Assembly: GCA_028751875.1 (NCBI GenBank)
Contig: CM054155.1
Coordinates: 2,131,346-2,195,345 of the forward strand
Reading direction: 5' to 3'
DNA length: 64,000 bases
Source of the DNA: Rapana venosa
Taxonomy: Eukaryota; Mollusca; Gastropoda; Neogastropoda; Muricidae
The notes beneath the pieces are model-generated. The model worked only from the letters and a program-made list of their open reading frames with translations, was not told the DNA's origin and searched no databases. This document shows positions 1-64,000 of this stretch, piece after piece. Position numbers and translations under genes: made by a program. Within the stretch, counting starts at the first letter, position 1. The number at the start of each line of letters is the position of its first letter.

Positions 1-4664
<4,664 letters not shown>

Positions 4665-5500
4665 GGTCATTTTAAGGGGGATTTAGAGTCTCATGCAGAT
4701 CAGGGCACACGTTGGGTAGAACCAATGAGTCGAGTCCACAAATGTTGAAACAGGTGGAGGACCAGAAAGCAAGGCGTGTTGTGGTGGGTAACGTTGTTGC
4801 GGTTAGTGACGTCAGAAGTGAGGGGGGAGGCAGATGTGGGGAATCCGCTGCAGTCGATGACGTATGCCGCACGTGTTCTCTTCTGGTTTTGCGGCGGTGA
4901 ATTCCAAGATTTACAATGTGCTCACGGAGTCGATTTTGCATATGGTGGAACACGTGAGGACAAAGCTTTCAAGTCTGTTGCAGTTAGAGTCATTGCAGTG
5001 GAGTAAGGAACACAGAGCAGTGGTGGAGGGGGTGGTTTTGGATCGTGAATCACGTGAAAATTTTCACGCTGCGGCAGGGTCAGGGTATGAAGGGTTGCAA
5101 AGACAAGCACAATCCGGTAAACACAAATCATCAGTCAATGAAATTTTGAAAATAAATATCAAATGAAGAAAATTATAAATTGAAATATATCAAATGTCAG
5201 ACAATGCCAAAGAAAACTGTTCTAACCGGATGTTGTAACAAAAACACAGATATAAAAATTTCCAGGAAGAACGTCGGAGAAACACACAATCACACACTCA
5301 AAACACAGAGACATGCACCATGCAGCCGCCAGGCGCAAAGGTTCAGCGTTGTTGGCTATGGTGGTAGAAAAAAACAATTGTTGCTATTTCATGGGGTAAA
5401 GAATCAAGATGAATTAAAATAAAATCAGACATGCAAGCATGCACAATATATGAAAATGTTTGTAAGATAAAGCTAATATGCGAACACACATACAAACAAG
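4665..5500. other. Unassigned segment with a short + strand ORF
   Basis: This is good-quality sequence that I cannot match to copy 2. A plus-strand frame is open at 4864-5166 (100 codons, ending TGA after about 5166) and reads like a helical, charged polypeptide (for example SKIYNVLTESILHMVEHV). The frame before it (4712-4900) is also open, so one shift could join them. I do not recognise the protein and see no clear splice sites. It may be a retrotransposon fragment, a real exon, or chance. By gene order it lies in INTS6 intron 4. After 5170 the sequence is A-rich and featureless. Confidence 0.3.
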
Positions 5501-14214: not shown

Positions 14215-14600
14215 CTGACCCTTCAGTGTCCATAGAATGTTGTTACGGGCATGCAGAAATGTTAGCTTTACACACAGGACCTCAGTTTATTGTATCATCT
14301 GAACACAAGACCTCAGTTTATTGTGTCATCTGAACACAAGACCTCAGTTTATTGTATTATCTGAACACAGGACCTCAGTTAATTGTACTGTCTGAACACA
14401 AGACCTCAGTTTATTGTGTCATCTGAACACAAGACCTCAGTTTATTGTATCATCTGAAGATTTTGTAGCGGAACAGAGCCATTGTAAACTATGGGGGGAA
14501 ATCTCTGTAGACTGCACAGCAAATGTGAATCTGCACCCTTGGATTAATCCAGACCACTGTACTAACCACTGTGGTAACTGCTCTGGAAAAAATTCTTAGT
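14215..14600 (-). mobile_element. SINE remnant carrying an internal minisatellite, copy 1
   Basis: The right end, read on the minus strand, looks like a tRNA-type head (TACCACAGTGGTTAGTAC, about 14556-14580). The left part is the 'ggacctcagtttattgtatcatctga' body motif found in other SINEs of the window, here expanded six times (see the minisatellite entry). Confidence 0.5.
14272..14457. repeat. 31-bp minisatellite, 6 copies, copy 1
   Basis: There are exactly six units of 31 bp (186 bp) beginning ACACAAGACCTCAGTTTATT with a few substitutions (ACAGG versus ACAAG, TATTATC, TACTGTC). The unit corresponds to a single-copy segment of the SINE bodies at about 15210, 18200 and 22755. The copy-2 array (49195-49380) also has six units. 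Confidence 0.92.
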
Positions 14601-17660: not shown

Positions 17661-17999
17661 CTCAGATGATTTTTTTTTTAATTGATTTTTTTTTATGCGT
17701 GTGTATGCAAATTTTTTAAATTTTGTCATGTGTTCCCACCGGCACACAATGGCCCATATGTGTGTTTTCAACATAAGGTTATATACAGCTTTGTTTAACT
17801 TTCTTAAGGGCAACTCTTCCCAGAGAAAGCATCTTCAATTTGACACAGCTGAATCTGCCATGACCATAAGTAATATACTATACAATTTAAAATGTGACTT
17901 CAGCCAGGACCATTCTATTGCTGTACCCATTCAGCAACTATTTTCATTTCATATTCATTTAATTCTTTTATTTACAGGGTAAAGGAATAAGCACTTGGT

Positions 18000-18265
18000 T
18001 GCTTTTTAGAGGATATTGGAATAAGCACTCATGTGCTTTTTAGAGGATAATGGAACAAGCACTCATGTGCTTTTTACATCCTGTCCCTGTGTGTATGCAG
18101 TGTTGTATTTGTCATCTGTTCCCACCATAGCCTACTCTTCAGAAAAGTGGAACTGGTTTCAACATGTGCCCAAGATGTTCCACGTGCGTTCACACACACG
18201 GGACCTCGGTTTATAATCTCATCCGAAGGACTTATGGGGGAGTGGAGTTGACTGCAAGTTTTTGT
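18000..18265 (-). mobile_element. SINE-body remnant, copy 1
   Basis: This is the same family as 10905-11200 and 15045-15320. 'gcactcatgtgctttttaga' and related text is repeated two or three times at the left end (17990-18070), followed by 'ctgttcccacc' and 'ataatctcatccgaaggact'. The copy-2 equivalent is about 52600-52825. Confidence 0.6.
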
Positions 18266-19144: not shown

Positions 19145-21330
19145 CAAAGTCAAAGTCAAAAACACTTTAATCATCCCATGAAGGGCAATTACAATACTGA
19201 CAGGCAGATTGACACTCATCAAATATATCAAAGACACAAAAGCTATATTTCATATTGGTTTTCAAATAAAATGTCACGACACACACACACACCACACACG
19301 CGCGCGCATGCGCACACACATCAATTGTGAACACAATTTTAAACCCATTGACTAGAAGACATAAAAACTTATTTTTACGCACGCATAAACGCAGCACTAC
19401 ACACGCACGTACGTGTGTGTGCGAATACGCCCATGCACACCCACACCATACACCAATATATGAATTCAATGTTTTAAGACAGTTGACTAGAACACAGACT
19501 TATTTCACACACCCACACACACCCCACACACACAATTATGTATTGACTACACTCGTAACAATGACAATCAGGCAGATAATTCAGAGAAATGTAAGAACTA
19601 GGTAGTCAACATCATTGTGAATTCAGAAGTCGAATGCTTATGGCACAAAAGAATTTCTTTTTCTGTTGGTTTTGCTGATGGGACACTGAAAACGGCGTTC
19701 CAAAGGCAACATTTGAAATTCTGGAAACAAAGCATGAGAGGATCAGCCAAAATGGCTGTGGCTTTTCGTACAAGCTGCTGATTGCAGAACGACATGAGAT
19801 CTCTTTGTTCTTTTCCAATTATTTTGAGCAGATTCTTACAATTCTCTGCAGGCCATTCTTGTTTTTAACACTAAGGTTATTGTACCAACAAATGAAAGCA
19901 AAACTTAGAACACTCTCTATGTAAGACTTGTAAAACAAGGAAAGGATCTTTTTGTCTACAAAAAATGAGTTCAGTTTCCTCAGAAAATACAGACGTTGTT
20001 GTCCCTTTTTGACAATAGCGTCAGTGTTAACGTCCCAGTTTAACTTGTGGTCAAAAACAGTTCCCAGATACTTATGTTCAAAACGTTTTCAACCTCTTGA
20101 TTATGGATAATAATATTCTTAGGAGTATGCCTGATCTTCTGAAGTCGATAGGCAGGTCTTTAGTTTTAGAAACATTTAGCTCCAGATAGGCCTCGTCACA
20201 CCAGTGTACGAACTCGGTGAGGGCTGGACCATGGTCTAAGACTGATCCGGATAAGAGGGATAACAGAGCACTATCGTCTGCGAACTTTACCAGAAAGGAA
20301 TTTCCATAGTTGCTTCTGCAATCATCTGTGTATAGAATGTACAGAAGTGGTGAGAGGACGCAACCCTGCGGAGAACCAGTGCAGGTAAATCTAACCGAAG
20401 AAGATATTTTGTTGGCAAAACACGCTGTGGTCTGTTGGTTAAAAATTCAATCAGCCAACGAACAAGTTGATTGTCTACGTCAATTTTGAAAATTTTTTTG
20501 TTAACCAGAACGTGAGGCTGCATTGTATTGAAAGCTGAACTAAAGTCAGGGAACAATATTCTGGCATGAGAGTCAGGTGTTTCCAAGTGGCTATACAAAC
20601 TTGTTCAAAATGAATAGTTTGGCATCTTCGACACCCCTTCGAGACCTGTATGCAAATTGCAGTGGGTCAAGGTCTTTCTCTGTAGCAGAAAGAATGAGAG
20701 ATTTTACGATCTTTTCCAGCGTTTTCATCACAAGAGATGTGAGAGCTACAGGTCTAAAATCGTTAGGCCGAGAAGGATTGGGTTTCTTTGGAAGAGGTAT
20801 TACATTGGAAGTTTTCCAAATAACAGGAATCTGACAAGTATCCAGTGAGGCCTGGAACAGGTGTTGAAGGACACTGGCAAGCTCAGTAGCGCAGAATTTC
20901 AGGGTTCTTCCACATATACCATCTGGTCCGGGAGATTTGTTAATATTTATTGCCTTTAAGTGCTTACAGATAATTTCTTCATCAACAATGACGCTATTCT
21001 CAGAAACTAGGGATTGCTTAGATCATTTAATTCATCTGAGAAATCATGCTTTTCAAAGCTAGTAAAAAATGCGTTTAGATGGTCTGGTAAGTTGTTATCA
21101 CATACTCCCTGCAAACTGATCTTTGAACCTATGTTGGACACCTACCATATTTACTGCAGACATATTTTTGATACCCTGCCATGCAGAACGAAAATTGTTC
21201 CTCGCAAACTTGTCTTCTATCTTATTTTTATATATACGTCTGGCCCGTGCAACAGCAGCTTTGACTTCTTTGTTTACTTCCTTCTTTTGTTGTTCTGTGC
21301 CTGTGTAAAAGGGAAATAACCAGTTTTAAT
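19145..21330 (-). pseudogene. Rex1/CR1-like LINE ORF2 remnant (reverse transcriptase), copy 1
   Basis: On the minus strand, in pieces separated by frameshifts, the order is as follows. A basic N-terminal segment contains KAAVARARRIYKNKIEDKFA. The fingers region carries DGICGRTLKFC, PVIWKTSNVIPLPKKPNPSR, DFRPVALTS and DPLQFAYRSRRGVEDA. The palm has DFSSAFNTMQPHVLV and a degraded SPQG region. The catalytic box is KFADDSALLS, with FADD at 20273-20284, followed by LELNVSKTK and YLGTVFD-like C-terminal sequence to about 19610. The 3' end has ATTAAAG...GACTTTGACTTTGA near 19145-19170. No endonuclease domain is present, so it is 5'-truncated and dead. Confidence 0.88.
19281..19440. repeat. CA/CG alternating microsatellites in the LINE 3' UTR, copy 1
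   Basis: Alternating purine-pyrimidine runs (cacacacgcgcgcgcatgcg at 19291-19310, then acacgcacgtacgtgtgtgt at about 19400) are followed by further CA repeats to about 19535. They are candidate Z-DNA-forming tracts. The copy-2 version (53780-54020) is shorter and noisy. Confidence 0.7.
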
Positions 21331-25725: not shown

Positions 25726-26570
25726 CTATCGGATAGACTGATATTTCATGTTTGCTTTGAAATTATAAAAAAAAAGTTTATGTGCATGATTTTTCAATGA
25801 ATGTCTTTTTTCAATTTATATTATAAAAAATTTGCCATCGCACCCTGTTTAGCTCAACAGTCCACTCTTTCAAGTTTTATTCCAAAGGAACACAGCCAAA
25901 AACTATTACAATATCCCAAGTCATGACATGAGGAGTGTCATGACATAATTATGATAAATCTTTTCTGACTGTTGGGACCCAGTCTTGCAGGGTACATTAA
26001 TATCATAAAAACCGACTCGACAGTGCAAAAGAAAACTATGTTAAAAAGCATGACTATTACTGCAGAAAATCAGTGCCATGAAGAAGGCATACAATTTAGC
26101 TGTAAACAATGAGTATGAGCAACCCATCCCGAGACAATAGATTATTTTTGTATTTTCAAAGCAGGAATAACAAACCCTAATCCTGCATCTAAATCATACA
26201 CCAAACCATCTGTAAATACTTTGAAATGGCCTTGAATAATGTATAATTTCAAGATGTTCTAAATCAGGAGTTGATGATTGATCAGTCATTATCATTTCTC
26301 TCTTGAATTAGGCAACGCAAAGAAGAAGAATTTCTCTCTTGAACAGTATAGTCGGTACTGAATTGACCCTGTTGACTAATTGAGCCTACTGTTGCTCTCA
26401 CTGTGGTATTTTACTATGATGGGAATTGAAGAAAGGTCTACATCACAGCATATTCTGCCAGTAAGTCAAAGACATCATTTCAAATTAGATAAAGGGAAGA
26501 TATTTGTTGAGCTCTTTTACTAGTGTTACTGTTAGGATAATCCATATTTGAATAGACCTATAAATCCTGG
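25726..26570. other. Intergenic, copy 1
   Basis: This is AT-rich sequence without a supported gene, RNA or named repeat. Copy 2 (59986-60850) carries an 18-bp insertion near 60672 relative to this copy. Confidence 0.55.
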
Positions 26571-27539: not shown

Positions 27540-28340
27540 CTTTTGATATAGAATCTCTGATGTAATTTAAGTTTGAAAATAATAAATACCCAAGAACTTG
27601 ATGTTTTGTGAATATTTCATCTTATTACCATCCATTTCTATTGGTAACGAACTTCGACTTTCTCCAGATAGAAAAACAACACATTGAATCTAGTTTTTCT
27701 CCTAAAACATCAAGCCTATATTTCTTTCATATATCTAGTTTGTCTAATGATATAAATTATTATGCTGTCTTCAAAGATGTATCTATTAGCTTTGTAATTA
27801 TCAGCAATGGTACTAGTTTACACTTATTCACGATTTTGTAATGGATACATCAATCAGATGGTATGCTATGTCTTACATATATATGACATGAATTTTGTTA
27901 AAGGTATGATAGAATATAAACAAACTATAGGATGCCCTTGCTTTTGGAATCCTTTCAATATCTACTTTGGTCTGAAACATCAACCACTGGCGCATTGACT
28001 TTAGGCCCCCCCCCCCCCCCCCCAAGCAAAACCCAAATAAAAAGCAAAAAACTATAAAACCCACCAAAACATGGTTGAATTGAAACAGTTCACCACTGAC
28101 TAAAATAACTTTTTGCTTAGATAGTAATATATCATCATCAATTATATCAAGCATGCCATATGTTATTGGTAGGCTTTACTGTGTCAAAAAAATGTGGCAA
28201 GCATACTCATTCTATGAACGCTTTTTTTTTAACATGGCTTGTAAGCTTCACTAGATGGTCTGTTATACACCTGCCTTTTCTGAAACCAGCTTTAGTCACA
28301 AGAACAATCCTTTCTAAACGTTCCTGCTTGTGAAATTAAT
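27540..28340 (-). pseudogene. Jockey-like LINE reverse-transcriptase remnant abutting the satellite, copy 1
   Basis: Minus-strand reading from 28340 leftward gives ALISQAGT directly after the satellite-encoded SYRPIA. Next, in another frame, come RLERIVLVTKAGFRKGRCIT and DHLVKLTSHV, then FFDTVK...WHA (motif A region), and a KFLGV-like segment near 27590. The catalytic box expected near 27800 is destroyed in this copy, whereas copy 2 retains YADD. The family assignment (Jockey-type, SYRPIALTS and GFRKGRCTTDHLV signatures) is from memory. Confidence 0.75.
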
Positions 28341-31300
28341 GCTATTGGTCTGTAACTATCAAGGGATGGGTTATGCTATTGGTCTGTAACTATCAACAGA
28401 TGGGATATGCTATTGGTCTATAACTATCAACAGATGGGCTATGCTATTGGTCTATAACTATCAAGGGATGGGCTATGCCATTGGTCTGTAACTATCAAGG
28501 GATGGGCTATGCTATTGGTCTATAACTATCAACATATGGGCTATGCTATTGGTCTATAACTATCAAGTGATGGGCTATGCTATTGGTCTGTAACTATCAA
28601 CAGATGGGCTATGCTGTTGGTCTATAACTATCAAGTGATGGGCTATGCTATTGGTCTGTAACTATCAACAGATGGGCTATGCTATTGGTCTGTAGCTATC
28701 AAGTGATGGGCTATGCCATTGGTCTATAACTATCAAGGGATGGGCTATGCTATAGGTCTGTAACTGTCAAGGGATGGGCTATGCTATAGGTCTGTAACTA
28801 TCAAGGGATGGGCTATGCTATTGGTCTATACCTATCAAGGGATTGGAGGCACCGTGGTCGAGTGGTTTAGACGGTCGACTCGTGATCCAGAGGTCGCGGG
28901 TTCGATCCCCGCTCGGCTCGGTGTTGTGTCCTTGGGAAAGACACTTTACTCCTATTTTCCTCACTCCACCCAGGTGTACAAGTGGGTACCAGCTCTGCTG
29001 GGGAAGTATCTGGCGACAGACTAGCGTCCTGTTACAGGGGTGGTGAAAAACCATCAGTTCGCTTAACGCTACAGAAACCGGGATAAGCTCCGGCTCTATG
29101 GTCCTTCTGGATCGAAAGAACATACTTTTTTTCTTTTTATCAAGGGATTGGCTATGCTATTAGTCTGTAACTATCAACAGATGGGCTATGCTATTGGTCT
29201 ATAACTATCAAGGGATGGGTTATGCTATAGGTCGGTAACTATCAAGGGATGGGCTATGCTATTGGGTCTATAACTATCAAGGGATGGGCTATGCTATTGG
29301 TCTGTAACTATCAAGGGATGGGCTATGCTATTGGTCTGTAACTATCAAGGGATGGGCTATGCTATTGGTCTGTAACTATCAAGGGATGGGCTATGCTATT
29401 GGTCTGTAACTATCAAGGGATGGGCTATGCTATTGGTCTCTAACTATCAACATATGGACTATGCTATTGGGTCTTTAACTATCAAGGGATGGGCTATGCC
29501 ATTGGTCTCTAACTATCAAGGGATGGGCTATGCTATTGGTCTGTAACTGTCAAGGGATGGGCTATGCTATTGGTCTAGAACTATCGAGGGATGGGTTATG
29601 CTATTGGTCTATAACTGTCAAGGGATGGGCTATGCTATTGGTCTATAACTATCAAGGGATGGGCTATGCTATTGGTCTATAACTATCAAGGGATGGGCTA
29701 TGCTATTGGTCTATAACTATCAAGGGATGGGCTATGCTATTGGTCTATAACTATCAAGGGATGGGCTATGCTATTGGTCTATAACTATCAAGGGATGGGC
29801 TATGCTATTGGTCTATAACTATCAAGGGATGGGCTATGCTATTGGTCTATAACTATCAAGGGATGGGCTATGCTATTGGTCTATAACTATCAAGGGATGG
29901 GCTATGCTATTGGTCTATAACTATCAAGGGATGGGCTATGCTATTGGTCTGTAACTATCAAGGGATGGGCTATGCCATTGGTCTGTAACTGTCAACAGAT
30001 GGGCTATGCTATTGGTCTGTAACTATCAAGGGATGGGTTATGCCATTGGTCTGTAACTATCAACAGATGGGCTATGCTATTGGTCTGTAACTGTCAACAG
30101 ATGGGCTATGTTATTGGTCTGTAACTAACAAGTGATGGGCTATGCTATTGGTCTAGAACTATCAACAGATGGGCTATGCTGTTAGTTTATAACTATCAAT
30201 GGATGGGCTATGCCATTGGTCTGTAACTATCAAGGGATGGGCGATGCTATTGGGTCTATAACTATCAAGGGATGGGCTATGCTATTGGTCTAGAACTATC
30301 ATGGGATGGGCTATGCTATTGGTCTATAACTATCAACATATGGGCTTTGCTATTAGGTCTATAACTATCAAGGGATGGGCTATACTATTGATCTAGAACT
30401 ATCAAGAGATGAGCTATGCTATTGGTCAGTAACTATCAAGGAATGGCTATGCTATTGGTCTATAACTATCAAGGGATGGGCTATGCTATTGGGTCTATAA
30501 CTGTCAAAAGATGGGCTATGCTATTGGTCTCTAACTATCAAGGGATGGCTATGCTATTGGGTCTATAACTATCAAGGGATGGGCTATGCTATTAGATCTA
30601 TAACTATCAAGGGATGGATAATGCTATTGGTCTGTAACTATCAAGGGATGGGATATGCTATTGGTCTCTAACTATCAACAGATGGGCTATGCTATTGATC
30701 TATAAGTATCAAGGGATGGGCTATGCTATTGGTCTATAACTTTCAAGGGATGGTCTATTGTATTGGTCTATAACTGTCAACTGATGGGCTATGCTGTTGG
30801 TCTATAAGTATCAAGGGATGGGCTATGCTATTGGTCTATAACTTTCAAGGGATGGTCTATTGTATTGGTCTATAACTGTCAACTGATGGGCTATGCTGTT
30901 GGTCTACAATTATCAAGGGATGGGCTATGCTGTTGGTTTATAACTATCAAGGGATGGGCTATGCCATTGGTCTGTAACTATCAAGGGATGGGCGATGCTA
31001 TTGGTTCTATAACTATCAAGAGATGGGCTATGCTATTGGTCTAGAACTATCAAGGGATGGGCTATGCTATTGGTCTATAACTATCAACATATGGGCTTTG
31101 CTATTAGGCCTATAACTATCAAGGGATGGGCTATACTATTGATCTAGAACTATCAAGAGATGGGCTATGCTATTGGTCTGTAACTATCAACAGATGGGCT
31201 ATACTATTAGTCTGTAACTATCAACAGATGGGCTATGCTATTGGTATATAACTATCAAGGGATGGGCTATGCTATTGGTCAGTAACTATCAAGGAATGGC

Positions 31301-32750
31301 TATGCTGTTGGTCTATAACTATCAAGGGATGGGCTATGCTATTGGGTCTATAACTGTCAAAAGATGGGCTATGCTATTGGTCTCTAACTATCAAGGGATG
31401 GCTATGCTATTGGGTCTATAACTATCAAGGGATGGCTATGCTATTGGGTCTATAACTGTCAAAGGATGGCCTATGCTATTGGGTTTATAACTACCAAGGG
31501 ATGGGCTATGCTATAGGTCTCTAACTATAAACAGATGGGCTATGCCATTTGGTCTATAACTTATCAACAAATGGGCTATGCCATTGGGTCAGTTACTATC
31601 AAGGGATTGGCTATATTATTGGTCTATAACTATCAAGGGATGGGCTGTGCTATTGGGTCTATAACTATCAAGGGATGGGCTATGCTATTGGGTCTATAAC
31701 TATCAAGGGATGGATAATGCTATTGGTCTGTAACTATCAAGGGATGGGATATGCTATTGGTCTCTATCAACAGATGGGCTATGCTATTGATCTATAAGTA
31801 TCAAGGGATGGGCTATGCTATTGGTCTATAACTTTCAAGGGATGGTCTATTGTATTGGTCTATAACTGTCAACTGATGGGCTATGCTGATGGTCTACAAT
31901 TATCAAGGGATGGGCTATGCTGTTGGTTTATAACTATCAAGGGATGGGCTATGCCATTGGTCTGTAACTATCAAGGGATGGGCGATGCTATTGGGTCAAT
32001 AACTATCAAGGGATGGGCTATGCTATTGGTCTGTAACTATCAAGGGATGGGCTATGCTATTGGTCTATAACTATCAACATATGGGCTTTGCTATTAGGTC
32101 TATAACTATCAAGGGATGGGCTATGCTATTGGTCTATAACTATCAAGGGATGGGCTATGCTATTAGCCTATAACTATCAACAGATGGGCTATCCTATTGG
32201 TTTATAACTATCAAGGGATGGTCTATGTTATTGGTCTATAACTATCAAGGGATGGACTATGCTATTGGGTCTATAACTATCAAGAGATGGGTATGCTTTT
32301 TGTCTGTAACTATCAAGGGATGGGCTGTGCTATTGGTCTATAACTATCAAGGGATGGGCTATGCTATTGGGTCCATAACTATCAAGGGATGGGCTATGGT
32401 ATTGGTCTGTAACTATCAAGGGATGGGCTATGATATTGGTCTATAACTATCAAGGGATGGGCTATGCTATTGGTCTGTAGCTATCAACAGATTGGCTATG
32501 CTATTGGTCTGAAACTATCAAGGGATGGGCTACGCTATTAGGTCTATAACTCAAGGGATGGGCTATGCTATTAGGTCTATAACTATCAAGGGATGGGCTA
32601 TGCTATTGGTCTGTAACTATCAAGGGATGGACTATGCTATTGGTCTATAGCTATCAAGGGATGGGCTATGCTATTGGTCTATAACTATCAAGGTATGGGC
32701 TAATCTATCGGGTCTATAACTATCAAGGGGTGGGGTATGCTATTTGGGTC
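28341..32750. repeat. 34-bp satellite array, copy 1 (~120 units)
   Basis: The tandem unit is 34 bp (consensus begins GGGATGGGCTATGCTATTGG and ends TCTATAACTATCAA). Variants include TCTGTAAC, AACAGATGG for AAGGGATGG, and an extra G before TCTATAAC. A SINE interrupts it at 28847-29137. Excluding that, about 4.1 kb remains, roughly 120 units. Read on the minus strand, the unit encodes PSLDSYRPIA, part of the adjacent LINE reverse transcriptase. The right end is degraded and runs toward the gap. Short plus-strand ORFs inside exist only where an extra G shifts past the TAA. Confidence 0.97.
28847..29137 (+). mobile_element. tRNA-derived SINE inserted into the satellite, copy 1
   Basis: The 5' tRNA-like head has an A box (TGGTCGAGTGG) and a B box (GGTTCGATCCC). 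The body includes CCTTGGGAAAGACACTTTAC and CACCCAGGTGTACAAGTGGG, a central-domain type shared by many invertebrate SINEs, and the tail is T-rich. It is flanked by a perfect 14-bp target-site duplication TATCAAGGGATTGG (28833-28846 and 29138-29151). The acceptor stem does not pair well, so it is not a functional tRNA gene. Confidence 0.93.
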
Positions 32751-32935
32751 TATATAAAACTATTTTGGCTATATTAATATGATGGGCTTTCATTGGCTAA
32801 ACTTATTTTTCAAGGGTTTTGGGTAGTTAATATGAATGGAATTATTTCTTCCCAAGGTTTGTGTGCAAAGGGGTTTTTAATTTTTAAGGGGTGGTACTAT
32901 TGGGGCTTTTCTTCAAAGGAAAAGTTTTTTTAATA
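32751..32935. other. Degraded contig end next to the gap
   Basis: The satellite periodicity fades and homopolymer-rich, error-like sequence runs to the Ns. I see no gene. Confidence 0.7.
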
Positions 32936-33435
32936 NNNNNNNNNNNNNNNNNNNNNNNNNNNNNNNNNNNNNNNNNNNNNNNNNNNNNNNNNNNNNNNNN
33001 NNNNNNNNNNNNNNNNNNNNNNNNNNNNNNNNNNNNNNNNNNNNNNNNNNNNNNNNNNNNNNNNNNNNNNNNNNNNNNNNNNNNNNNNNNNNNNNNNNNN
33101 NNNNNNNNNNNNNNNNNNNNNNNNNNNNNNNNNNNNNNNNNNNNNNNNNNNNNNNNNNNNNNNNNNNNNNNNNNNNNNNNNNNNNNNNNNNNNNNNNNNN
33201 NNNNNNNNNNNNNNNNNNNNNNNNNNNNNNNNNNNNNNNNNNNNNNNNNNNNNNNNNNNNNNNNNNNNNNNNNNNNNNNNNNNNNNNNNNNNNNNNNNNN
33301 NNNNNNNNNNNNNNNNNNNNNNNNNNNNNNNNNNNNNNNNNNNNNNNNNNNNNNNNNNNNNNNNNNNNNNNNNNNNNNNNNNNNNNNNNNNNNNNNNNNN
33401 NNNNNNNNNNNNNNNNNNNNNNNNNNNNNNNNNNN
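32936..33435. other. Scaffold gap, exactly 500 N
   Basis: The 500 consecutive Ns are a conventional fixed-size join of unknown true length. It separates contig 1 (satellite end) from contig 2 (INTS6 intron 6). Open frames spanning it are meaningless. Confidence 1.
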
Positions 33436-35630: not shown

Positions 35631-36649
35631 GATACAAAATCTACAACCCAATAAAAAAATATCTGAAAACAAACTCGTTTTCCCCCAGAAAAAAAGTAGC
35701 TCTGCCAAGTTCTGATGCAATTTTATTTTCGGTTGCCCAGAAAAAAAAAAAAAGCCCCCATAAAGAGCTTTCTTCTGTCTGGGCTTTACCACTGTTAAAA
35801 CCCGGGTGTTTTTGAAAAAGGTCCCTTTTTCACTTTCATACCCGCTGAAATGTAAAAAATTTTAAGAAAACAAACTGGGGAAAAATTTTCTTTTGACTTT
35901 CTGGGGTTAATGCACTTTTTGGGAATTTTAAAAAAAACTCTCTCTTGTGACCTTAACCCGGGGCCCTTTTTTGATGCTGAAAAGTGATGGGGACAAAGGG
36001 TTGTTTTGCCAAAAAATAATAATAAAAGGAAAATTTTTATAGCCATATCTTTTAGAGACAAAAACAAAGTGCCTTTTCAAAACAACTCATTCTTACCCCA
36101 AAATCATACAAAACCCGTGTATAGTTTTCCCTCAAAATCCAAAAAGTGCACACAAAAGCACACAAACACACACGCGCACACACACAAAACCCCACACACC
36201 AACCACACAGGCACACACCCTGGTGGGGAATAGAAAATTTTGGGTGTTGAAGGAGGGAAAAAAAATGGAGATGAGGGGAGGAGAAAGGGTAAAACTTAGG
36301 GTTTTTTAAAAAAATCCTTTTTAGGACTGGGTTTAAAAAATTTCATAAAAGGCCCTTTTTACGGGGAAAAAGAGAGGGGGATCATTCCACATCAAAGGAC
36401 AGCCCAAAAAGAAAGAGCGACGGCCGTTTGGGGGATTGGGGTTTAAAAAAAAGGTATTCGCCCAAAAAACAAGGGATCTGCCGCAGAGCGGGGGGAACGG
36501 GAAGGGGTACAAGTGAAGAAAATTCAAAAGAGGGAGGCTGGGGGGGTTTTTGTGGGAAAATTTGTAACAGAGGGACTGATCTTATGTTTACCCCTTTTGG
36601 CCAGGGAGCCAGTGGGGCGATTGCAAAAGAGGGGTAATATGGGTCAGAT
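35631..36649. other. INTS6 intron 4, noisy sequence
   Basis: This is low-quality sequence with inflated homopolymers and a CA-rich tract at about 36150-36220. I see no supported gene. Confidence 0.55.
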
Positions 36650-37870
36650 TTTTTCTTTTTTGAGGGGTTAGACGAGCTGCAGGGTTTTTTTTACGTTTAA
36701 GGGATTGGGGTAGATGATGCGGCAGACCAGCCCCAAGAGTTTAATAAATCCCCCGGGCGTGAAAGTTTGGAGCCCCAAAAAGTTTGGAAATTTTAACTGT
36801 TTGGGCCGGGACTTTCGAATTGACTTACGCCGTAAAATTTTTAGTAGCAGGAATGGCAGGTCTGAAATGATGAATTTTTGCCCTAGGAGTGGGGTTGTCA
36901 ATAATGACCCCCTAGATACTTCACAGCATTGGGTTAAAAAGGGGCGTTTCATTGCCAAGTTTTAAAGCTGGGTTTTGATGGAAAGAGGTTTGTGTTTTGG
37001 TCCCAACCCAACAAAGGTTTCTTTTTTAAACTGCATTTTGCTGTTTTGTTCTGTATCATCCAAAATTTTGGGATATCTTGGGAAAAAGTGGGCCATATTT
37101 GTAAAGAGAGAAGGCAGATTTTCAGGGTGTCCCCTGCTTAAAACTAGGTCATCTGCATAAAAATGATGGTTTATCTGATGGCGGTTAATTTAAATTTACA
37201 GTGGAGCAAGTAGAGGGTGAAAAGAACAGGGGCCCCCCAAAAGAAACCCCGTGGAACTCCCAATTTTCCCAACTTTCAGGTACTGCCTGAATCTGGGTTT
37301 CTGTGGGCTGTCTTAAAACGGTCAGAAAAGGGTTTAACTAAACCAGGGAAAAAGGTTGTACCAGTAACACCCAAAAAGTTTTTTGAAGACGGGAAGAAGA
37401 ATAAATGGTCAATAGTGTCAAAGGCTGCAGATAAACGAGGGAGTAAGAAGAGGATTTTTTCCCCGATCAGAAGGGGGTAGAAGTGTGTTTTTTAAAGGGA
37501 TGGGCAAAGGGTTTTTTTCAGTGCAAGGGGACGCAAAAGGCCCAAATGAAACCAGGAAAAGGGGGGACTGGGTTTGGGGAGGAAGGGGGTTTTTGAGGGT
37601 GTTTTTGAACACTTTTCAAGGACTTTAAAAATAAACGGTTTTGATTGGGAAAAAGGGCTATAGTTCTTTTAGAATGTTGGGGTCCCAAAGGGCATGGGTT
37701 TTTGAGTAGAGGTTTTACTATGGGAGTTTTTAAAAGCGAAGGGGAAAAATTTTTCCGAGACAAAGATAAGGGTTTTCTATATTGTATAGTGGGAATTTAA
37801 TTTGGGGGAGGGACTGCCCAAAAAAGAAGCAGGTTGGGGTCAAGATCACAATTTTTATAGTCATTCCTTT
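36650..37870 (-). pseudogene. L2/CR1-like LINE reverse-transcriptase fragment in INTS6 intron 4
   Basis: On the minus strand from right to left: DLDPLPAS (about 37845), FKTPIVKPLLK (about 37740-37700), a KNYRPISNL-like region, SAAFDTIDH (37410-37434), a damaged QGSVLGPVLFTLY region (about 37250-37200), the catalytic box FYADDLVL (YADD at 37148-37159), and KFLGL-like sequence near 36780. This order is typical of an RNA-directed DNA polymerase of CR1/L2-type non-LTR elements. It is a different family from the LINEs at 19.1 and 27.5 kb. Frames are heavily broken, partly by consensus error. No endonuclease domain was seen. Confidence 0.8.
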
Positions 37871-40204
37871 CAGAAAATTTGTTCGATTTCTTTCTCGCAA
37901 TTCATTTCCGGGGAAAATTGGGGGGATAATTAAAAAAGTTTTGGTTGAATTGATAAATTTGAATTTTAAAATTTTGGGGTTTTAGAAAATAATGAAAAAT
38001 TTTACAAGGGTAATTGGTTGGGGAAATTAAAAGAAAATTTTTTTAGAAAAGAAATAAATTGTTAGTTTTGGGAAAAAAATTTAAAAATTTGAAGGAAAAA
38101 AAGAATTAAAGAATATTGTTTTGGTGGGTTTTTAAGAATTTGGTATTAAAATTTTTTGATTTTTTAAGAAATTTTTTTAAATTTTTTTTTTTTTTGGTTA
38201 AATTTGGGTTTTTTTGGGAAGGGAATAAATTTTTAATTAAGGGTTTTAAAGGAAAAGGGGAAGTAAGTAGTAGGTTTTTTTTCTATAATTTTTGAATAAA
38301 TTTATTTAAATTATTTTTAAATTTTATTGGTAAAAAATTTTGGGGAAATAAATTTGAATATAAAAGGTTGAGGTTTTGGGGGGTTTTTATTTTTTTATAT
38401 AATTTTTAGAATGTTTTTAAAAAGAAAAAATTTATTTTTAAATGAAAAAATTTTAATATAAAAATTTGAATGTAAATAAATTTTTAAATTAATTGTAAAA
38501 AGTTTTTTAACATGTGTTTTAAGATTATTTTGTATTCTTAATAAATAAAGAAATTTTTAAATGAAAAAAGAGTTGACATAAATAAATTGAATTTAATTGA
38601 TTAAATTTAAAAGAATTAAAAAAGTTTTTTTTGGGGAAAAATTTTTAATGGGAAAAGGGGGGTCCAGAAAATTTGGGTGGGAAAATGAAAGGGGTTGTCA
38701 AACTAGCAAGGGTTTGGGGGTCAAGGAAAAACAGAAAATAAAGGGAAAAAGGGCCCGGTGGTTTTGGAAAAGAGGCAAACCCCCCCTTTCGAAAAAAATT
38801 TTGGTGAAAAAGGAATTTTTGACGGGAAACCCGAACTTGGGGAAGGGGAGTCTTTTTCTGAAGAAAAATTTTAACCCCCGGAAGGGGAGGGGAAAAAAAG
38901 TTTTGTTTTTGGTTTTTTTTTTTGCTTTCCGCCTAGTTTGGGTTTTGCGTTTTGGGAAAAAATTGTCAAGGGTTTTTTTGGGTTGCAAAAACACAGGGGA
39001 AAAGGGGGCATGTCCCAAAAGGGGTTGGGGGGATTTAGGTTAAAGGGGAGATTTTGGGGTTTTTAGGGGAAACACTTTTTGGAAAAAAAGGTTTTTTAAA
39101 AGGCCTTGGGGGTTCGATTTAAAGACGGTTGGTTTTCGTTGGGCAAAAAAGAATAGCCTGAGGAACAGTGAGGGTAAGGCTAGATGTGAAACCTTTTGGG
39201 AATTTTCGGAATGAGTTTGGCTTTGGGGGTTTTTAAGGGGGGGAAAAGGTGAACCAAGGAAATGGGGGAAAGAGCTTACTCAAGGGGGACCGGTTTCGGG
39301 ATTTGAAACCAAAAAGTAAAATTTTTTGAAAGGTTAAACAAATGGTTGGGAAACTTTGGGGGAAAAGAAAAGCAAAAGGCCAGGTTGGGAGGGAACGGGG
39401 GCCGAAAATAAAGAGCCCGGAAGGGGAGGGAGGCCCGATTGGTTTTGGGGAAAAAAAGGGTGCAGTTTTGACAGGGGGGAATGCCCGAGTGTTTCCCCTT
39501 TAGGGGTTTTTGGGGGAAAAAGATTTTGACCAAGGGGGGTACATTTTTGGCTTGGTGGGAAAAAAAGTTTTTAAAAACTTAATCAGGTTTGCAAAAAAAG
39601 AAAAAAGACGCCCTTGGGGCAGTTTGGGTTTTGGAAAACAAGGAGAGGTTTTAGGGGGGGGTTTTTGGGGAAACGGGGGTAGTGAAAATTTTACTCTGGG
39701 AAGGGCAGGATGAAAAATGTTTAAAGAAAGGGAAAATGGAAACAAAATTTTTTAGTCAATGGGGAAAATTTTAAACCCCCCTTAAAAAAATTTAAAAAAT
39801 TTAAAGTCTCCAAGCAATCAAAAAAAAACGTTTTTGGGGGTTTTTTTAACCCAAAAACCCGATAAAAAATTTTTGAAAAGGGGGAGGCCAAAACAATAAA
39901 AAGGGGGGGGGGTGGGGGGGGGCCTGGGGCCGGTAAAGTTTTCCCCGGGAGTGCTTTGGGGGGGAAGGGGGAAAAAAACAAAGGGGTTTTTTTCTGGTTT
40001 GGGGGGGAAAAATTCCCAAAATTTAAAATTTAAAAATTAAAATCAAACCAATTTTTCAAATCATTTCAAAAAAAATAAAATTTTGGGGAAAAAAATGGGG
40101 GGGTTTGGGGGGGAAAAAAAAAAACAAACACAAAAAAAAGCGGGAAAACAAACAAAAACCCAAAAACCAAGGGAAAAAAAAAAACAAAAAATGGGAAAAA
40201 AACC
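37871..40204. other. C-depleted and homopolymer-rich intronic stretch
   Basis: 37986-38600 contains only a handful of C residues in about 615 bases while G remains common. The rest is A/G/T-heavy with long homopolymers. The open frames here have biased composition (Lys/Gly/Phe or Pro/Phe/Lys) and are not credible genes. Copy-2 homology to copy 1 becomes recognisable from about 40205. Confidence 0.6.
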
Positions 40205-41157
40205 CCAAAAAAAAGCAGCCCTCCCCGGGAATTTTTAATTTGAAAAAAATTCCAATTTCTTTTTTTTTGCAACTTCCAAAAAAAAACAAAAGGGAAACGG
40301 GAAAAAAAAAAACCCCTAAACGGGGCCTTTTTTTCCCCTTTAAGCCAATCCACACACACACCACCCCTCCTGAGGCTTTTAAAAGCACATGTGCAGCGAG
40401 GAAAAAAGGCTTTTTGGCCCTGTTTTGCAAAAACACAAGCAACATCTTTTCCCACACGTTTAAAACCCCGTCGCTTTTTTTAAAGATTTGGCCTTTGTGT
40501 GCTTGGGGGGAACCCTTACCCAAAAATTTTTAAAACCAGAAGCCCCAAAGGAACTGGTGAAAAAACACATTAGTGTTTTCCCCTTTAAACCTTTAAAAAA
40601 ACAAAATAAATAAAATCGGTTCCAAAAAATAGAAAATGGATAGTAAATGCTTTTATCATTCAAATATGATTTTAAACGTTTTTTAAAAAAATTTCGATAT
40701 CAAAATTTTTTCTGAATAAAACATACAGAGTGGGAGGGGTTTTATTTGTATTTATTTTACCCTCAACAACAGAAAAATGCTCCCTGTAAAACAAAAACCT
40801 GAATGGTTTCAAGACCAAAGAAAAAAATCAAGACAGGGTTTCATTTTTTATTCAGAAAAAAACCAAATTTTTATTTCTTTTTTTTAAAAAAAAAATTTGA
40901 TTCCCCCCCCAGAAAGTTTAAAAAAAGTTTTGGGAAAAAAATAAAACAGTTTTTAAAAAAGCAGACCATTTTTCCGGGGGAAAGTCACTCAGATGCACAT
41001 TGCCCTCATACGCCTTTTTTTTCCCAAAAGAGCCATTTTCAGCAAGGGCCCTTCCAGAAGCTGTCCAAAAAAACCATATGTCTTCTTTCAAATCCCCAAA
41101 CCTACCCGATAACAACAAATAAAAAAAATTAAACAAACAAAAAAAAAAAGACTGCAC

Positions 41158-49194: not shown

Positions 49195-49380
49195 ACACAG
49201 GACCTCAGTTTATTGTATCATCTGAACACAAGACCTCAGTTTATTGTGTCATCTGAACACAAGACCTCAGTTTATTGTATTATCTGAACACAGGACCTCA
49301 GTTAATTGTACTGTCTGAACACAAGACCTCAGTTTATTGTGTCATCTGAACACAAGACCTCAGTTTATTGTATCATCTGA
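49195..49380. repeat. 31-bp minisatellite, 6 copies, copy 2
   Basis: It has the same unit, copy number and internal variants as 14272-14457. It sits just before the abrupt onset of noisy consensus at about 49430. Confidence 0.92.
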
Positions 49381-49429
49381 AGATTTTGTAGCGGAACAGA
49401 GCCATTGTAAACTATGGGGGGAAATCTCT

Positions 49430-59985: not shown

Positions 59986-60849
59986 AGACTGATATTTCAT
60001 GTTTGCTTTGAAATTATAAAAAAAAAAGTTTATGTGCATGATTTTTCAATGAATGTCTTTTTTCAAATTATATTATAAAAAATTTGCCATCGCACCCTGT
60101 TTAGCTCAACAGTCCACTCTTTCAAGTTTTATTCCAAAGGAACACAGCCAAAAACTATTACAATATCCCAAGTCATGACATGAGGAGTGTCATGACATAA
60201 TTATGATAAATCTTTTCTGACTGTTGGGACCCAGTCTTGCAGGGTACATTAATATCATAAAAACCGACTCGACAGTGCAAAAGAAAACTATGTTAAAAAA
60301 GCATGACTATTACTGCAGAAAATCAGTGCCATGAAGAAGGCATACAATTTAGCTGTAAACAATGAGTATGAGCAACCCATCCCGAGACAATAGATTATTT
60401 TTGTATTTTCAAAGCAGGAATAACAAACCCTAATCCTGCATCTAAATCATACACCAAACCATCTGTAAATACTTTGAAATGGCCTTGAATAATGTATAAT
60501 TTCAAGATGTTGTTCTAAATCAGGAGTTGATGATTGATCAGTCATTATCATTTCTCTCTTGAATTAGGCAACTCAAAGAAGAAGAATTTCTCTCTTGAAC
60601 AGTATACTCGGTACTGAATTGACCCTGTTGACTAATTGAGCCTACTGTTGCTCTCACAGTGGTATTTTACTAGGTGTAGTATTGTTGGTATGATGGGAAT
60701 TGAAGAAAGGTCTACATCACAGCATATTCTGCCAGTAAGTCAAAGACATCATTTCAAATTAGATAAAGGGAAGATATTTGTTGAGCTCTTTTACTAGTGT
60801 TACTGTTAGGATAATCCATATTTGAATAGACCTATAAATCCTGGCAAGG

Positions 60850-60940: not shown

Positions 60941-61830
60941 GTTAGCTGCAAAAGCAGCCCCGCACCAACTGGTGACGTTCCTATCAAGACAGGGTGGGAC
61001 AACAGGTGGCTGTGTTGTCTCCATAAAATACCCCATATCATATGACCTATGATGGGCACATCAGGTGATCAAGAGCCGCACTTAAAGCTCTGCCCCCTGG
61101 GCTCCCAGGGTAATGCTAACAGGAGATAAGGGTGGGGTAACCTTGACAGAAACCTAGAGGGCTGAAGTCGGTGGTATGGGGCCAAAGAGTGCTCTCGAAC
61201 AAGTCATCATACCATGCAATAAACAAACAAAAAGCCTGAAGACTCTGTCAGATACTGGTGAAAGTAATGGTGCTTGCCCTGTGAAGAAATATGTGGCCAA
61301 TGGAGATAACTCTGCAAACCAAGCTGTACGGCCCATGAGAGGAGCTGGAAAGGACTTGCCATTATTTTTCTCAGACACATCTGATAGTGTAAAGTGAATG
61401 AGAGGAGAAGAAAAATCTGTAAATAATCAGTTTTGACTGAATTTGATACTGAGAGGCTTCTTAAGATATGTACTTAGCTACAGAGAAATGGCGTTGATCT
61501 GAGGGAGAAAGCAAATTATCCTTTTTATAAGTGATTAGTATGCAATGTAGTTGTGTGAACTAGAACCCCAAGAGCTTATTTTCAAGGTTGATTTACTGTC
61601 AGTACTTCGCAGCTTTTTCACCAAAGAGCATGGTGCTGAAATGTGCACTTCTGCCCTTAAACCCATTTTGATCTGACCAGAGTAGAACAGCTGCTAAAAT
61701 AATGTCATTGTGGTCTGATGTTGTTGTTGTTGTTGTTGTTGTCTTGAGCCCGTGGCTGGTCAGCAGTCATTTTTAGGTAGTCTGGTCTTTTTCTTGCTGT
61801 GTCTATTAGCTTTTGATATAGAATCTCTGA
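60850..61830 (+). other. Possible LINE 5' end / ORF1 fragment, copy 2
   Basis: This is the equivalent of 26571-27539. The frame begins at 61176 with MGPKSALEQVIIPCNKQTKS and ends SDTSDSVK at 61397, differing from copy 1 at its C-terminus by a small indel. No domain is recognised. Confidence 0.3.
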
Positions 61831-62602
61831 TGTAATTTAAGTTTGAAAATAATAAATACCCAAGAACTTGATGTTTTGTGAATATTTCATCTTATTACCA
61901 TCCATTTCTAATTGTAACGAACTTCGACTTTCTCCAGATAGAAAACAACACATTGATCTAGTTTGTTCTCCTAAAACATCAAGCCTATTTTCTTTCATAT
62001 ATCTAGTTTGTCTAATTGATAAATTTTCTTCTCATGATTATTATAGCTGTTTTAGAAGTATGTTTCCTAATTCATCCATATTGTAATATCATCTGCATAT
62101 GGTACTAAGTTTACATTATTTGACAGAATTTTGGAAAGGTAATGAATAAGAATAGAAAACAAACAGTGTAGGAGTGCCATTGACTTTTGAGGAATTCTGG
62201 TTTCAATATTTTTGAGTGATGAAATCATTGAACCTACTGTTGCGCATGTTGAACTTTAAGACCCCCCCCCCCCCCCCTCCCCAAGCAAAACCCAAACAAA
62301 ACTAAAGCAAAAACTAAAAAACCCACCAAAACATGTTGATATTGAAACAGTTCACCACTGACTAAAATAACTTTTAGCTTAGATAGTAATATATCATCAT
62401 CATTATATCAAGCATGCCATATGTTATGGTAGGCTTTACTGGTGTCAAAAAATGTGGCAAGCATACTCATTCTATGAGCGCTTTTTTTTTTTAACATGGC
62501 TTGTAAGCTTCACTAGATGGTCTGTTATACACCTGCCTTTTCTGAAACCAGCTTTAGTCACAAGAACAATCCTTTCTAAACGTTCCTGCTTGTGAAATTA
62601 AT
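61831..62602 (-). pseudogene. Jockey-like LINE reverse-transcriptase remnant abutting the satellite, copy 2
   Basis: On the minus strand, AGFRKGRCITDHLVKLTSHV-type sequence (about 62495-62575) precedes a long in-frame palm segment. This has RIPQ and CLFSILIHYLSKIL, then the catalytic box PYADDITIW with YADD at 62088-62099. It is much closer to a functional reverse transcriptase than copy 1, although stops occur on both sides. The element continues from the SYRPIA coding segment that forms the satellite unit. Confidence 0.82.
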
Positions 62603-63891
62603 GCTATTGGTCTGTAACTATCAAGGGATGGGTTATGCTATTGGTCTGTAACTATCAACAGATGGGCTATGCTATTGGTCTGTAACTATCAACAGATGGG
62701 CTATGCTATTGGTCTGTAACTATCAACAGATGGGTTATGCTATTGGTCTGTAACTATCAACAGATGGGCTATGCTATTGGTCTGTAACTATCAAGTGATG
62801 GGCTATGCTATTGGTCTGTAACTATCAACAGATGGGCTATGCTATTGGTCTATAACTATCAAGGGATGGGTTATGCTATTGGTCTGTAACTATCAAGTGA
62901 TGGGCTATGCTATTGGTCTGTAACTATCAACAGATGGGCTATGCTATTAGGTCTATAACTATCAAGTGATGGGCTATGCTATTGGTCTGTAACTATCAAG
63001 TGATGGGCTATGCTATTGGTCTGTAACTATCAACAGATGGGCTATGCTATTGGTATATAACCATCAAGGGATGGGCTATGCTATTGGTCTGTAACTATCA
63101 ACAGATGGGCTATGCTATTGGTCTATAACTATCAAGTGATGGGCTATGCTATTGGTCTGTAACTATCAACAGATGGGCTATGCTATTGGTCTATAACCAT
63201 CAAGGGATGGGCTATGCTATTGGTCTGTAACTATCAACAGATGGGCTATGCTATTGGTATATAACTATCAAGTGATGGGCTATGCTATTGGTCTGTAACT
63301 ATCAAGGGATGGGCTATGCTATTGGTCTATAACTATCAAGGGATGGGTTATGCTGTAGGTCTGTAACTGTCAAGGGATGGGATATGCTATTGGTCTATAA
63401 CTATCAAGGGATTGTCTATGCTATTGGTCTATAACTATCAAGTGATGGGCTATGCTATTGGTCTGTAACTATCAACAGATGGGCTATGCTATTGGTCTGT
63501 AACTATCAACAGATGGGCTATGCTATTGGTCTGTAACTATCAACAGATGGGCTATGCTATTGGTCTATAACTATCAAGGGATGGGTTATGCTATAGGTCT
63601 GTAACTGTCAAGGGATGGGCTATGCTATTGGTCTATAACTATCAACAGATGGGCTATGCTATTGGTCTGTAACTATCAACAGATGGGCTATGCTATTGGT
63701 CTGTAACTATCAACAGATGGGCTATGCTATTGGTCTGTAACTATCAACAGATGGGCTATGCTATTGGTCTATAACTATCAAGGGATGGGTTATGCTATAG
63801 GTCTGTAACTGTCAAGGGATGGGCTATGCTATAGGTCTGTAACTATCAAGGGATGGGCTATGCTATTGACCTATACCTATCAAGGGATTGG
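62603..63891. repeat. 34-bp satellite array, copy 2 (left part)
   Basis: It has the same unit as 28341-32750. About 1275 bp (37.5 units) lie before the SINE target-site duplication, against 492 bp (14.5 units) in copy 1. The difference is 23 whole units to within 1 bp. Alternation of TCTGTAACTATCAACAG and TCTATAACTATCAAGGG-type units is common here. Confidence 0.97.
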
Positions 63892-64000
63892 AGGCACCGT
63901 GGTCGAGTGGTTTAGACGGTCGACTCGTGATCGAGAGGTCGCGGGTTCGATCCCCGCTCGGCTCGGTGTTGTGTCCTTGGGAAAGACACTTTACTCCTAT
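63892..64000 (+). mobile_element. tRNA-derived SINE in the satellite, copy 2 (cut by window end)
   Basis: It is the same insertion as 28847-29137, preceded by the same TATCAAGGGATTGG (63878-63891). The A and B boxes are present and the body is truncated at the window edge. The shared site shows the insertion predates the split of the two copies. Confidence 0.92.

What the first reader, a model, noticed from the sequence alone, without database searches (positions are those of the whole stretch)
28341..32750. 34-bp satellite made from a reverse-transcriptase motif
The minus-strand satellite unit reads PSLDSYRPIA, the conserved SYRPI segment of Jockey-type reverse transcriptases. The array ends exactly where the rest of that domain (ALISQAGT, then AGFRKGRC, FFDTVK, and YADD in copy 2) continues on the same strand. 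The satellite therefore seems to have nucleated inside a LINE by local tandem amplification of about 34 bp. Because 34 is not a multiple of 3, it cannot be a protein repeat. TE-to-satellite conversion is known, but seeding within a conserved RT motif with the parent still attached is a clear, possibly undescribed case.
Basis: partly seen in the sequence, partly recalled or inferred. Interest (0 to 1): 0.8.

Follow-up and report, generated by a model that had tools for sequence, protein, structure and literature searches.

The report
Minisatellite grown inside a dead retrotransposon
A dead jumping gene in an animal genome carries a short stretch of its own enzyme code copied more than a hundred times in a row; this looks like a clear example of a known way in which repetitive DNA is born.

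Summary
Over 100 minus-strand 34-bp units run up to 28339; the last continues unbroken into a LINE reverse-transcriptase relic: NPSLDSYRPIA|LISQAG, then AGFRKGRC, FFDTVK and, in copy 2, YADD. Chance is excluded: 0 of 200,000 shuffles of the junction unit match eight relatives' RT segment as well. The flank without array letters finds a 508-aa relative at E 8.6e-35. Of 123 related proteins collected, 108 show the segment and none shows a second copy there. Best explanation: local tandem amplification of 34 bp inside one dead LINE copy. Corrections: an RNase H-like part follows, so 'Jockey-type' is doubtful; a SINE interrupts the array; its far end is lost in poor sequence before a gap; the 'two copies' may be two haplotypes of one locus. 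Satellites from LINE ORF2 are already described, so this is a new member of a known kind. Arrays elsewhere in the genome, and same-genome LINE copies, stayed untested: the genome search failed 16 of 16 times.

The parts
28339..28846 (-). RT-proximal part of array 1: 15 units of 34 bp (the one at the SINE partial)
28339..28372 (-). junction unit, NPSLDSYRPIA, in frame with LISQAG of the LINE
28846..29140 (+). tRNA-headed SINE inserted in the array; TATCAAGGGATTGG on both sides looks like a target-site duplication
   Evidence: Rfam tRNA match at 28848-28920; sequence; edges ambiguous by a few bases
29141..32754 (-). distal part of array 1: 107 segments (first and last partial), with internal segmental duplications
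32755..32935 (.). degraded-looking sequence before the 500-N gap; the far end of the array is not seen
28150..28338 (-). LINE RT relic directly after the array: LISQAG, ERLERIV, AGFRKGRCITDHLVKLTSHVKK, FFDTVK, NNIWHA
   Evidence: translation; tblastn of P0002, P0007 and P0010
27149..27680 (-). LINE RT relic, region after the palm (KFLGIY..ARKRPDYLKM..VRSKW..)
   Evidence: tblastn of P0010, P0011
26020..26228 (-). RNase H-like part of the same relic (FKVFTDGLVYDLDAGLGFVIP)
   Evidence: tblastn of P0010 residues 439-506, joint E 1.5e-6; no Pfam match for this piece
62601..63891 (-). array in the second copy: 38 units between LINE and SINE
62484..62628 (-). second copy: SLDSYRPIALISQAG and AGFRKGRC..SHVKKK
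   Evidence: tblastn of P0002
62073..62252 (-). second copy: IPQKS..LFSILIH..YADDITIWM
   Evidence: tblastn of P0001, P0003, P0011; Pfam RVT_1 E 0.005, below its cutoff
61420..62007 (-). second copy: region after the RT palm
   Evidence: tblastn of P0010, P0011
60309..60481 (-). second copy: RNase H-like part
   Evidence: tblastn of P0010, joint E 2.4e-6
63891..64000 (+). second copy: same SINE, cut by the window end
   Evidence: 99.1% over 110 bp

Best explanation
The array is a minisatellite born in place inside a dead copy of a LINE whose RT is followed by an RNase H-like part. A 34-bp piece coding (S/N)PSLDSYRPIA plus one base, at the start of the RT domain, was tandemly duplicated, most likely by replication slippage or repair (inferred), then expanded to over 100 units by slippage and unequal exchange (inferred). 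The array has no coding role as an RT piece: each unit shifts the frame by one base. The LINE part downstream of the duplicated segment still lies beside it. A SINE later inserted into the array, before the two assembled copies parted. Shown: the junction, the identity of the flank, a single copy of the segment in related proteins, internal segmental duplications. Inferred: the order of events and the molecular mechanism.
For: The junction unit runs in frame into LISQAG of the LINE. 0 of 200,000 shuffles match relatives' RT segment as well. The flank without array letters finds P0010 over 98% of the query, E 8.6e-35, and P0011. Relatives P0002, P0005, P0007 read GKPKS[AS]IASYRPIAL[TI]SHAG once. 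Of 123 proteins collected, 104 have one [YF]RP[IVL] match and 1 has two, the other being PFRPV 147 residues away; of the 18 without a match, 13 begin downstream of the place, 3 have an altered single copy (SYRPT, SYRLM, SYRSI), and in 2 it is missing or not recognised. The junction is identical over 142 nt in both copies. Exact internal duplications of 105-128 bp lie at offsets of 853-1092. 15 against 38 units lie between LINE and SINE in the two copies.
Against: No DNA of an intact copy from this genome was seen; single copy is shown only in related, mostly unnamed proteins, by a regular expression that would miss a decayed duplicate. The eight proteins of the shuffle test came from a query that contained the unit; the flank-only hits P0010 and P0011 begin downstream of the place, though P0010 is 75% identical to P0003, which carries the segment once. 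The upstream half of the LINE is not found in the window: the far array end is lost at the gap. In the distal part of array 1, neighbouring units are hardly more alike than distant ones (4.2 differences at distance 1, 3.9-5.0 at distances 31-80), so no slippage gradient is seen. Raw changes among units are rich in silent ones for the RT frame (143 silent, 149 replacement, against 23:76 possible), as if constrained; I put this down to two common variants, unit positions 9 and 21, both third codon positions, because distinct change types (10:35) are not enriched.
Confidence: 0.9

Rival explanations
1. A 34-bp satellite of other origin was already there, and a 5'-truncated LINE landed beside it; the SYRPIA reading is coincidence.
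For: 5' truncation is usual for LINEs (recalled), and the upstream half of the element is absent from the window.
Against: 0 of 200,000 fixed-frame and 0 of 1,500 any-frame shuffles reach the observed match, and the frame and position are those needed to continue the RT next to LISQAG.
Confidence: 0.03
2. The unit was amplified in another copy of the same LINE and reached this locus by recombination or transposition, as part of a dispersed satellite family.
For: The array is long and its units lie 6-7% from their consensus; genome-wide distribution could not be tested (genome search did not complete).
Against: The flank continues the LINE without a break, and one local event explains what is seen.
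Confidence: 0.06
3. The array and its two versions are assembly artefacts of poor reads.
For: Parts of the window look like low-quality sequence, and array 1 ends in degraded bases at a gap.
Against: Both copies carry the array with the same junction and the same SINE, with many distinct unit variants. Lengths may be wrong; existence hardly.
Confidence: 0.01

Closest known systems
PROsat of Phodopus roborovskii (LINE-1 ORF2-related satellite; from PMC9659126, passages and section 6 seen, not the original paper)
   Same: tandem repeat related to a LINE coding region
   Different: ORF2 is reported 88% similar to a small region of PROsat only; here the whole 34-bp unit reads as RT code and the LINE is still attached
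HinfI/SCR1 satellite of chicken (CR1, 3' UTR and part of ORF2) and Pvc 20 of harbour seal (L1 ORF2), as listed in a table of PMC9659126
   Same: satellite repeats from LINE ORF2 sequence
   Different: different LINE families; unit lengths and flanks of these were not read here
Minisatellites from Alu, B1 or MaLR elements (tables and passages of PMC6947457 and PMC9659126)
   Same: short unit amplified from a retroelement
   Different: those parents are SINEs or LTR-type elements, not a LINE coding region

Membership tests
TE-derived minisatellite or satellite | head-to-tail array of a unit homologous to part of a TE | tested here: met
TE-derived minisatellite or satellite | segment single-copy in relatives of the TE | tested here: met
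   108 of 123 collected proteins show it (105 by motif, 3 altered), none shows a second copy there; 13 begin downstream, 2 lack it. Same-genome DNA not available
TE-derived satellite as a genome-wide family | arrays at several loci | not tested
   The genome search unanswered 16 of 16 times
LINE (non-LTR retrotransposon) relic | RT domain homology in the flank | tested here: met
   flank-only query finds P0010 at E 8.6e-35; P0010 carries Pfam RVT_1 at E 7.2e-32; of four short relic pieces scanned directly, one matched RVT_1 (E 0.005, below cutoff) and three matched nothing
Jockey clade | no RNase H after the RT (recalled, from no call) | tested here: not met
   RNase H-like parts at 26020-26228 and 60309-60481 match P0010 residues 439-506; Pfam RNase_H scores 19.9 in P0010 and 25.6 in P0056 against a cutoff of 25.8; the relic's own piece has no Pfam match. 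Two relatives carry the given name 'transposon X-element', recalled as a Jockey-clade name
I-like LINEs with RNase H | RT followed by RNase H; placement in a tree | tested here: inconclusive
   domain order indicated; no tree with reference elements made

The most novel reading that the evidence does not exclude
The unit is the founder of a satellite family spread through this genome, all seeded at one spot of the RT motif of a LINE, so that the birth locus with its parent still attached can be studied beside its descendants.
Probability: 0.15. Interest if true: 0.5.

Novelty: new member of a known kind. Interest (0 to 1): 0.32.

Why it matters
It catches a tandem repeat with its source sequence still joined to it, in frame, so the origin of the unit can be read directly instead of being inferred from distant similarity. 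[quoted passage not shown]

Tried and rejected
Protein repeat: rejected, since 34 is not a multiple of 3; distinct change types show no silent bias (10:35 against 23:76 possible), although raw counts do (143:149). Chance: rejected. Array as a normal part of the LINE family: rejected, none of 123 collected proteins has it. Upstream half of the LINE in the window: not found; at E 1e-6 the 123 proteins hit only this relic (both copies) and the other LINE near 20 kb; at E 0.05 the first 11 proteins gave a few further short weak matches. Array or LINE in other collections: 24-base pattern in viral contigs, 0; P0002 in viral contigs, 4 pattern matches, 0 confirmed; alignment A2 in viral contigs, 35 pattern matches, 0 confirmed; P0010 in genome contigs, 18 pattern matches, 0 confirmed. 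These collections hold viral and prokaryote contigs, so the blanks say little. Amphioxus as host was a guess of mine, followed by one paper search only (0 papers). The host is not identified. In the profile search (best 120 of 1,199 shown), sources name the snails Nucella lapillus and Batillaria attramentaria, the spider Trichonephila clavipes and the fish Fundulus heteroclitus; two hits bear prokaryote metagenome labels (Sulfurovum sp., Nitrososphaeraceae archaeon).

Full report
What is there. Array 1 (28339-32754) and array 2 (62601-63891) are made of 34-bp units. Segmentation on the minus strand gives 107 + 15 + 38 segments; 158 of the 160 are complete enough for the column counts, and 128 are exactly 34 nt. 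The most variable positions of the unit are 9 (C, T, A), 10 (C, G) and 21 (T, C). Of the 128 segments of exactly 34 nt, 80 end in SYRPIA in the frame of the junction unit. A tRNA-headed SINE (28846-29140; Rfam tRNA) splits array 1 and stands beside the same variant unit in copy 2, where only its first 110 bp are in the window.

The flank. On the minus strand, directly after the last unit, comes LISQAG in frame, then in another frame ERLERIVLVTKAGFRKGRCITDHLVKLTSHVKK with FFDTVK and NNIWHA (copy 1), and in copy 2 IPQKS..LFSILIHYLSKILSNNVNLVPYADDITIWMN. Protein searches indicate a LINE reverse transcriptase: 9 proteins at E up to 1e-3 among 84 candidates with the unit included in the query, and 2 of 886 candidates, P0010 (E 8.6e-35, 98% of the query) and P0011, with the flank alone. 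These queries joined pieces across frames and from both copies. Direct Pfam scans of four short pieces gave one weak match, RVT_1 at E 0.005, below its cutoff, and three without a match. The relic extends to 26020 with an RNase H-like part, which Pfam does not recognise in the relic itself. Stops in that part are shared by both copies.

Origin of the unit. In the eight relatives that cover the place the reading is GKPKS(A/S)IASYRPIAL(T/I)SHAGK (three) or GK(P/S)xxxxNSYRPI(A/S)(L/I)TSH(V/T)CK (five). The junction unit reads NPSLDSYRPIA and runs on into LISQAG. Scored against these eight it gets 30.6; the best of 200,000 dinucleotide shuffles gets 24.6. The eight came from a query that held the unit, but P0010, found by the flank alone, is 75% identical to P0003, which is one of them. 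Of 123 proteins collected (one search listed only the best 120 of 1,199), 104 carry one [YF]RP[IVL] match, 1 carries two (P0087; the other is PFRPV, 147 residues upstream) and 18 carry none. Of the 18, 13 begin downstream of the place, 3 have an altered single copy there (P0020, P0058, P0090), P0045 seems to have lost it and in P0074 I did not recognise it. None shows a tandem copy. Between the L after SYRPIA and AGFRK the relic has 46 nt, where seven relatives imply 90 and P0007 108, a lesion shared by both copies.

Behaviour of the array. In the RT frame, distinct change types among units are 10 silent and 35 replacement, as expected without constraint (23:76 possible); raw counts are 143 silent and 149 replacement, because two third-position variants (unit positions 9 and 21) are common (the reading is mine). 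Array 1 holds exact internal duplications of 105, 125 and 128 bp at offsets of 990, 1092 and 853 bp, and a homogeneous run at 29618-29950. Neighbouring units are hardly more alike than distant ones. Between LINE and SINE there are 15 units in copy 1 and 38 in copy 2. This fits a length-variable minisatellite, but assembly error cannot be excluded in such sequence.

The two copies. 5621-28340 and 40351-62602 align in the same order in two long pieces, with about 250 bp near 20.1-20.3 kb left out. Of 23 stretches of about 1 kb, 8 differ by 0.2-1.3% and 15 by 2.3-13.1%. I judge the low ones to be the well-read ones and take the copies as two haplotypes of one locus placed one after the other across the 500-N gap; this is an inference, and a duplication is not excluded.

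Comparison with print. Two reviews, of which I saw passages and, in PMC9659126, section 6, list satellites from LINEs (PROsat, Pvc 20, HinfI/SCR1) and minisatellites from SINEs and LTR-type elements. Of the ten paper searches I saw the listings only; no listed title or abstract start concerns this unit. The library holds open-licence papers only, so no claim of absence from print is made. The kind is known; the attached parent and the position at the RT motif make a neat example.

Limits. 'Satellite' is therefore more than the evidence carries; 'LINE-derived minisatellite' fits.

Noticed in passing
28846-29140 and 63891-64000: tRNA-headed SINE inserted within the array beside the same variant unit in both copies; apparent target-site duplication TATCAAGGGATTGG in copy 1
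   Followed up: partly
19822-21325 (-): second, different LINE RT relic (NDFRPVALTS..FADD), hit by 90 of the 123 collected proteins at E 1e-6
   Followed up: no
5621-28340 and 40351-62602: two copies in the same order; 8 of 23 one-kb stretches differ by only 0.2-1.3%; perhaps two haplotypes joined across the gap at 32936-33435
   Followed up: partly
1-5000 and about 36000-40350: sequence that looks badly read, with a poly-G run at 245-1403
   Followed up: no
14272-14458 and 49195-49381: 31-bp unit, 6 copies, in both copies
   Followed up: no
17971-18076: another 34-bp period, 3 copies, of different sequence
   Followed up: no
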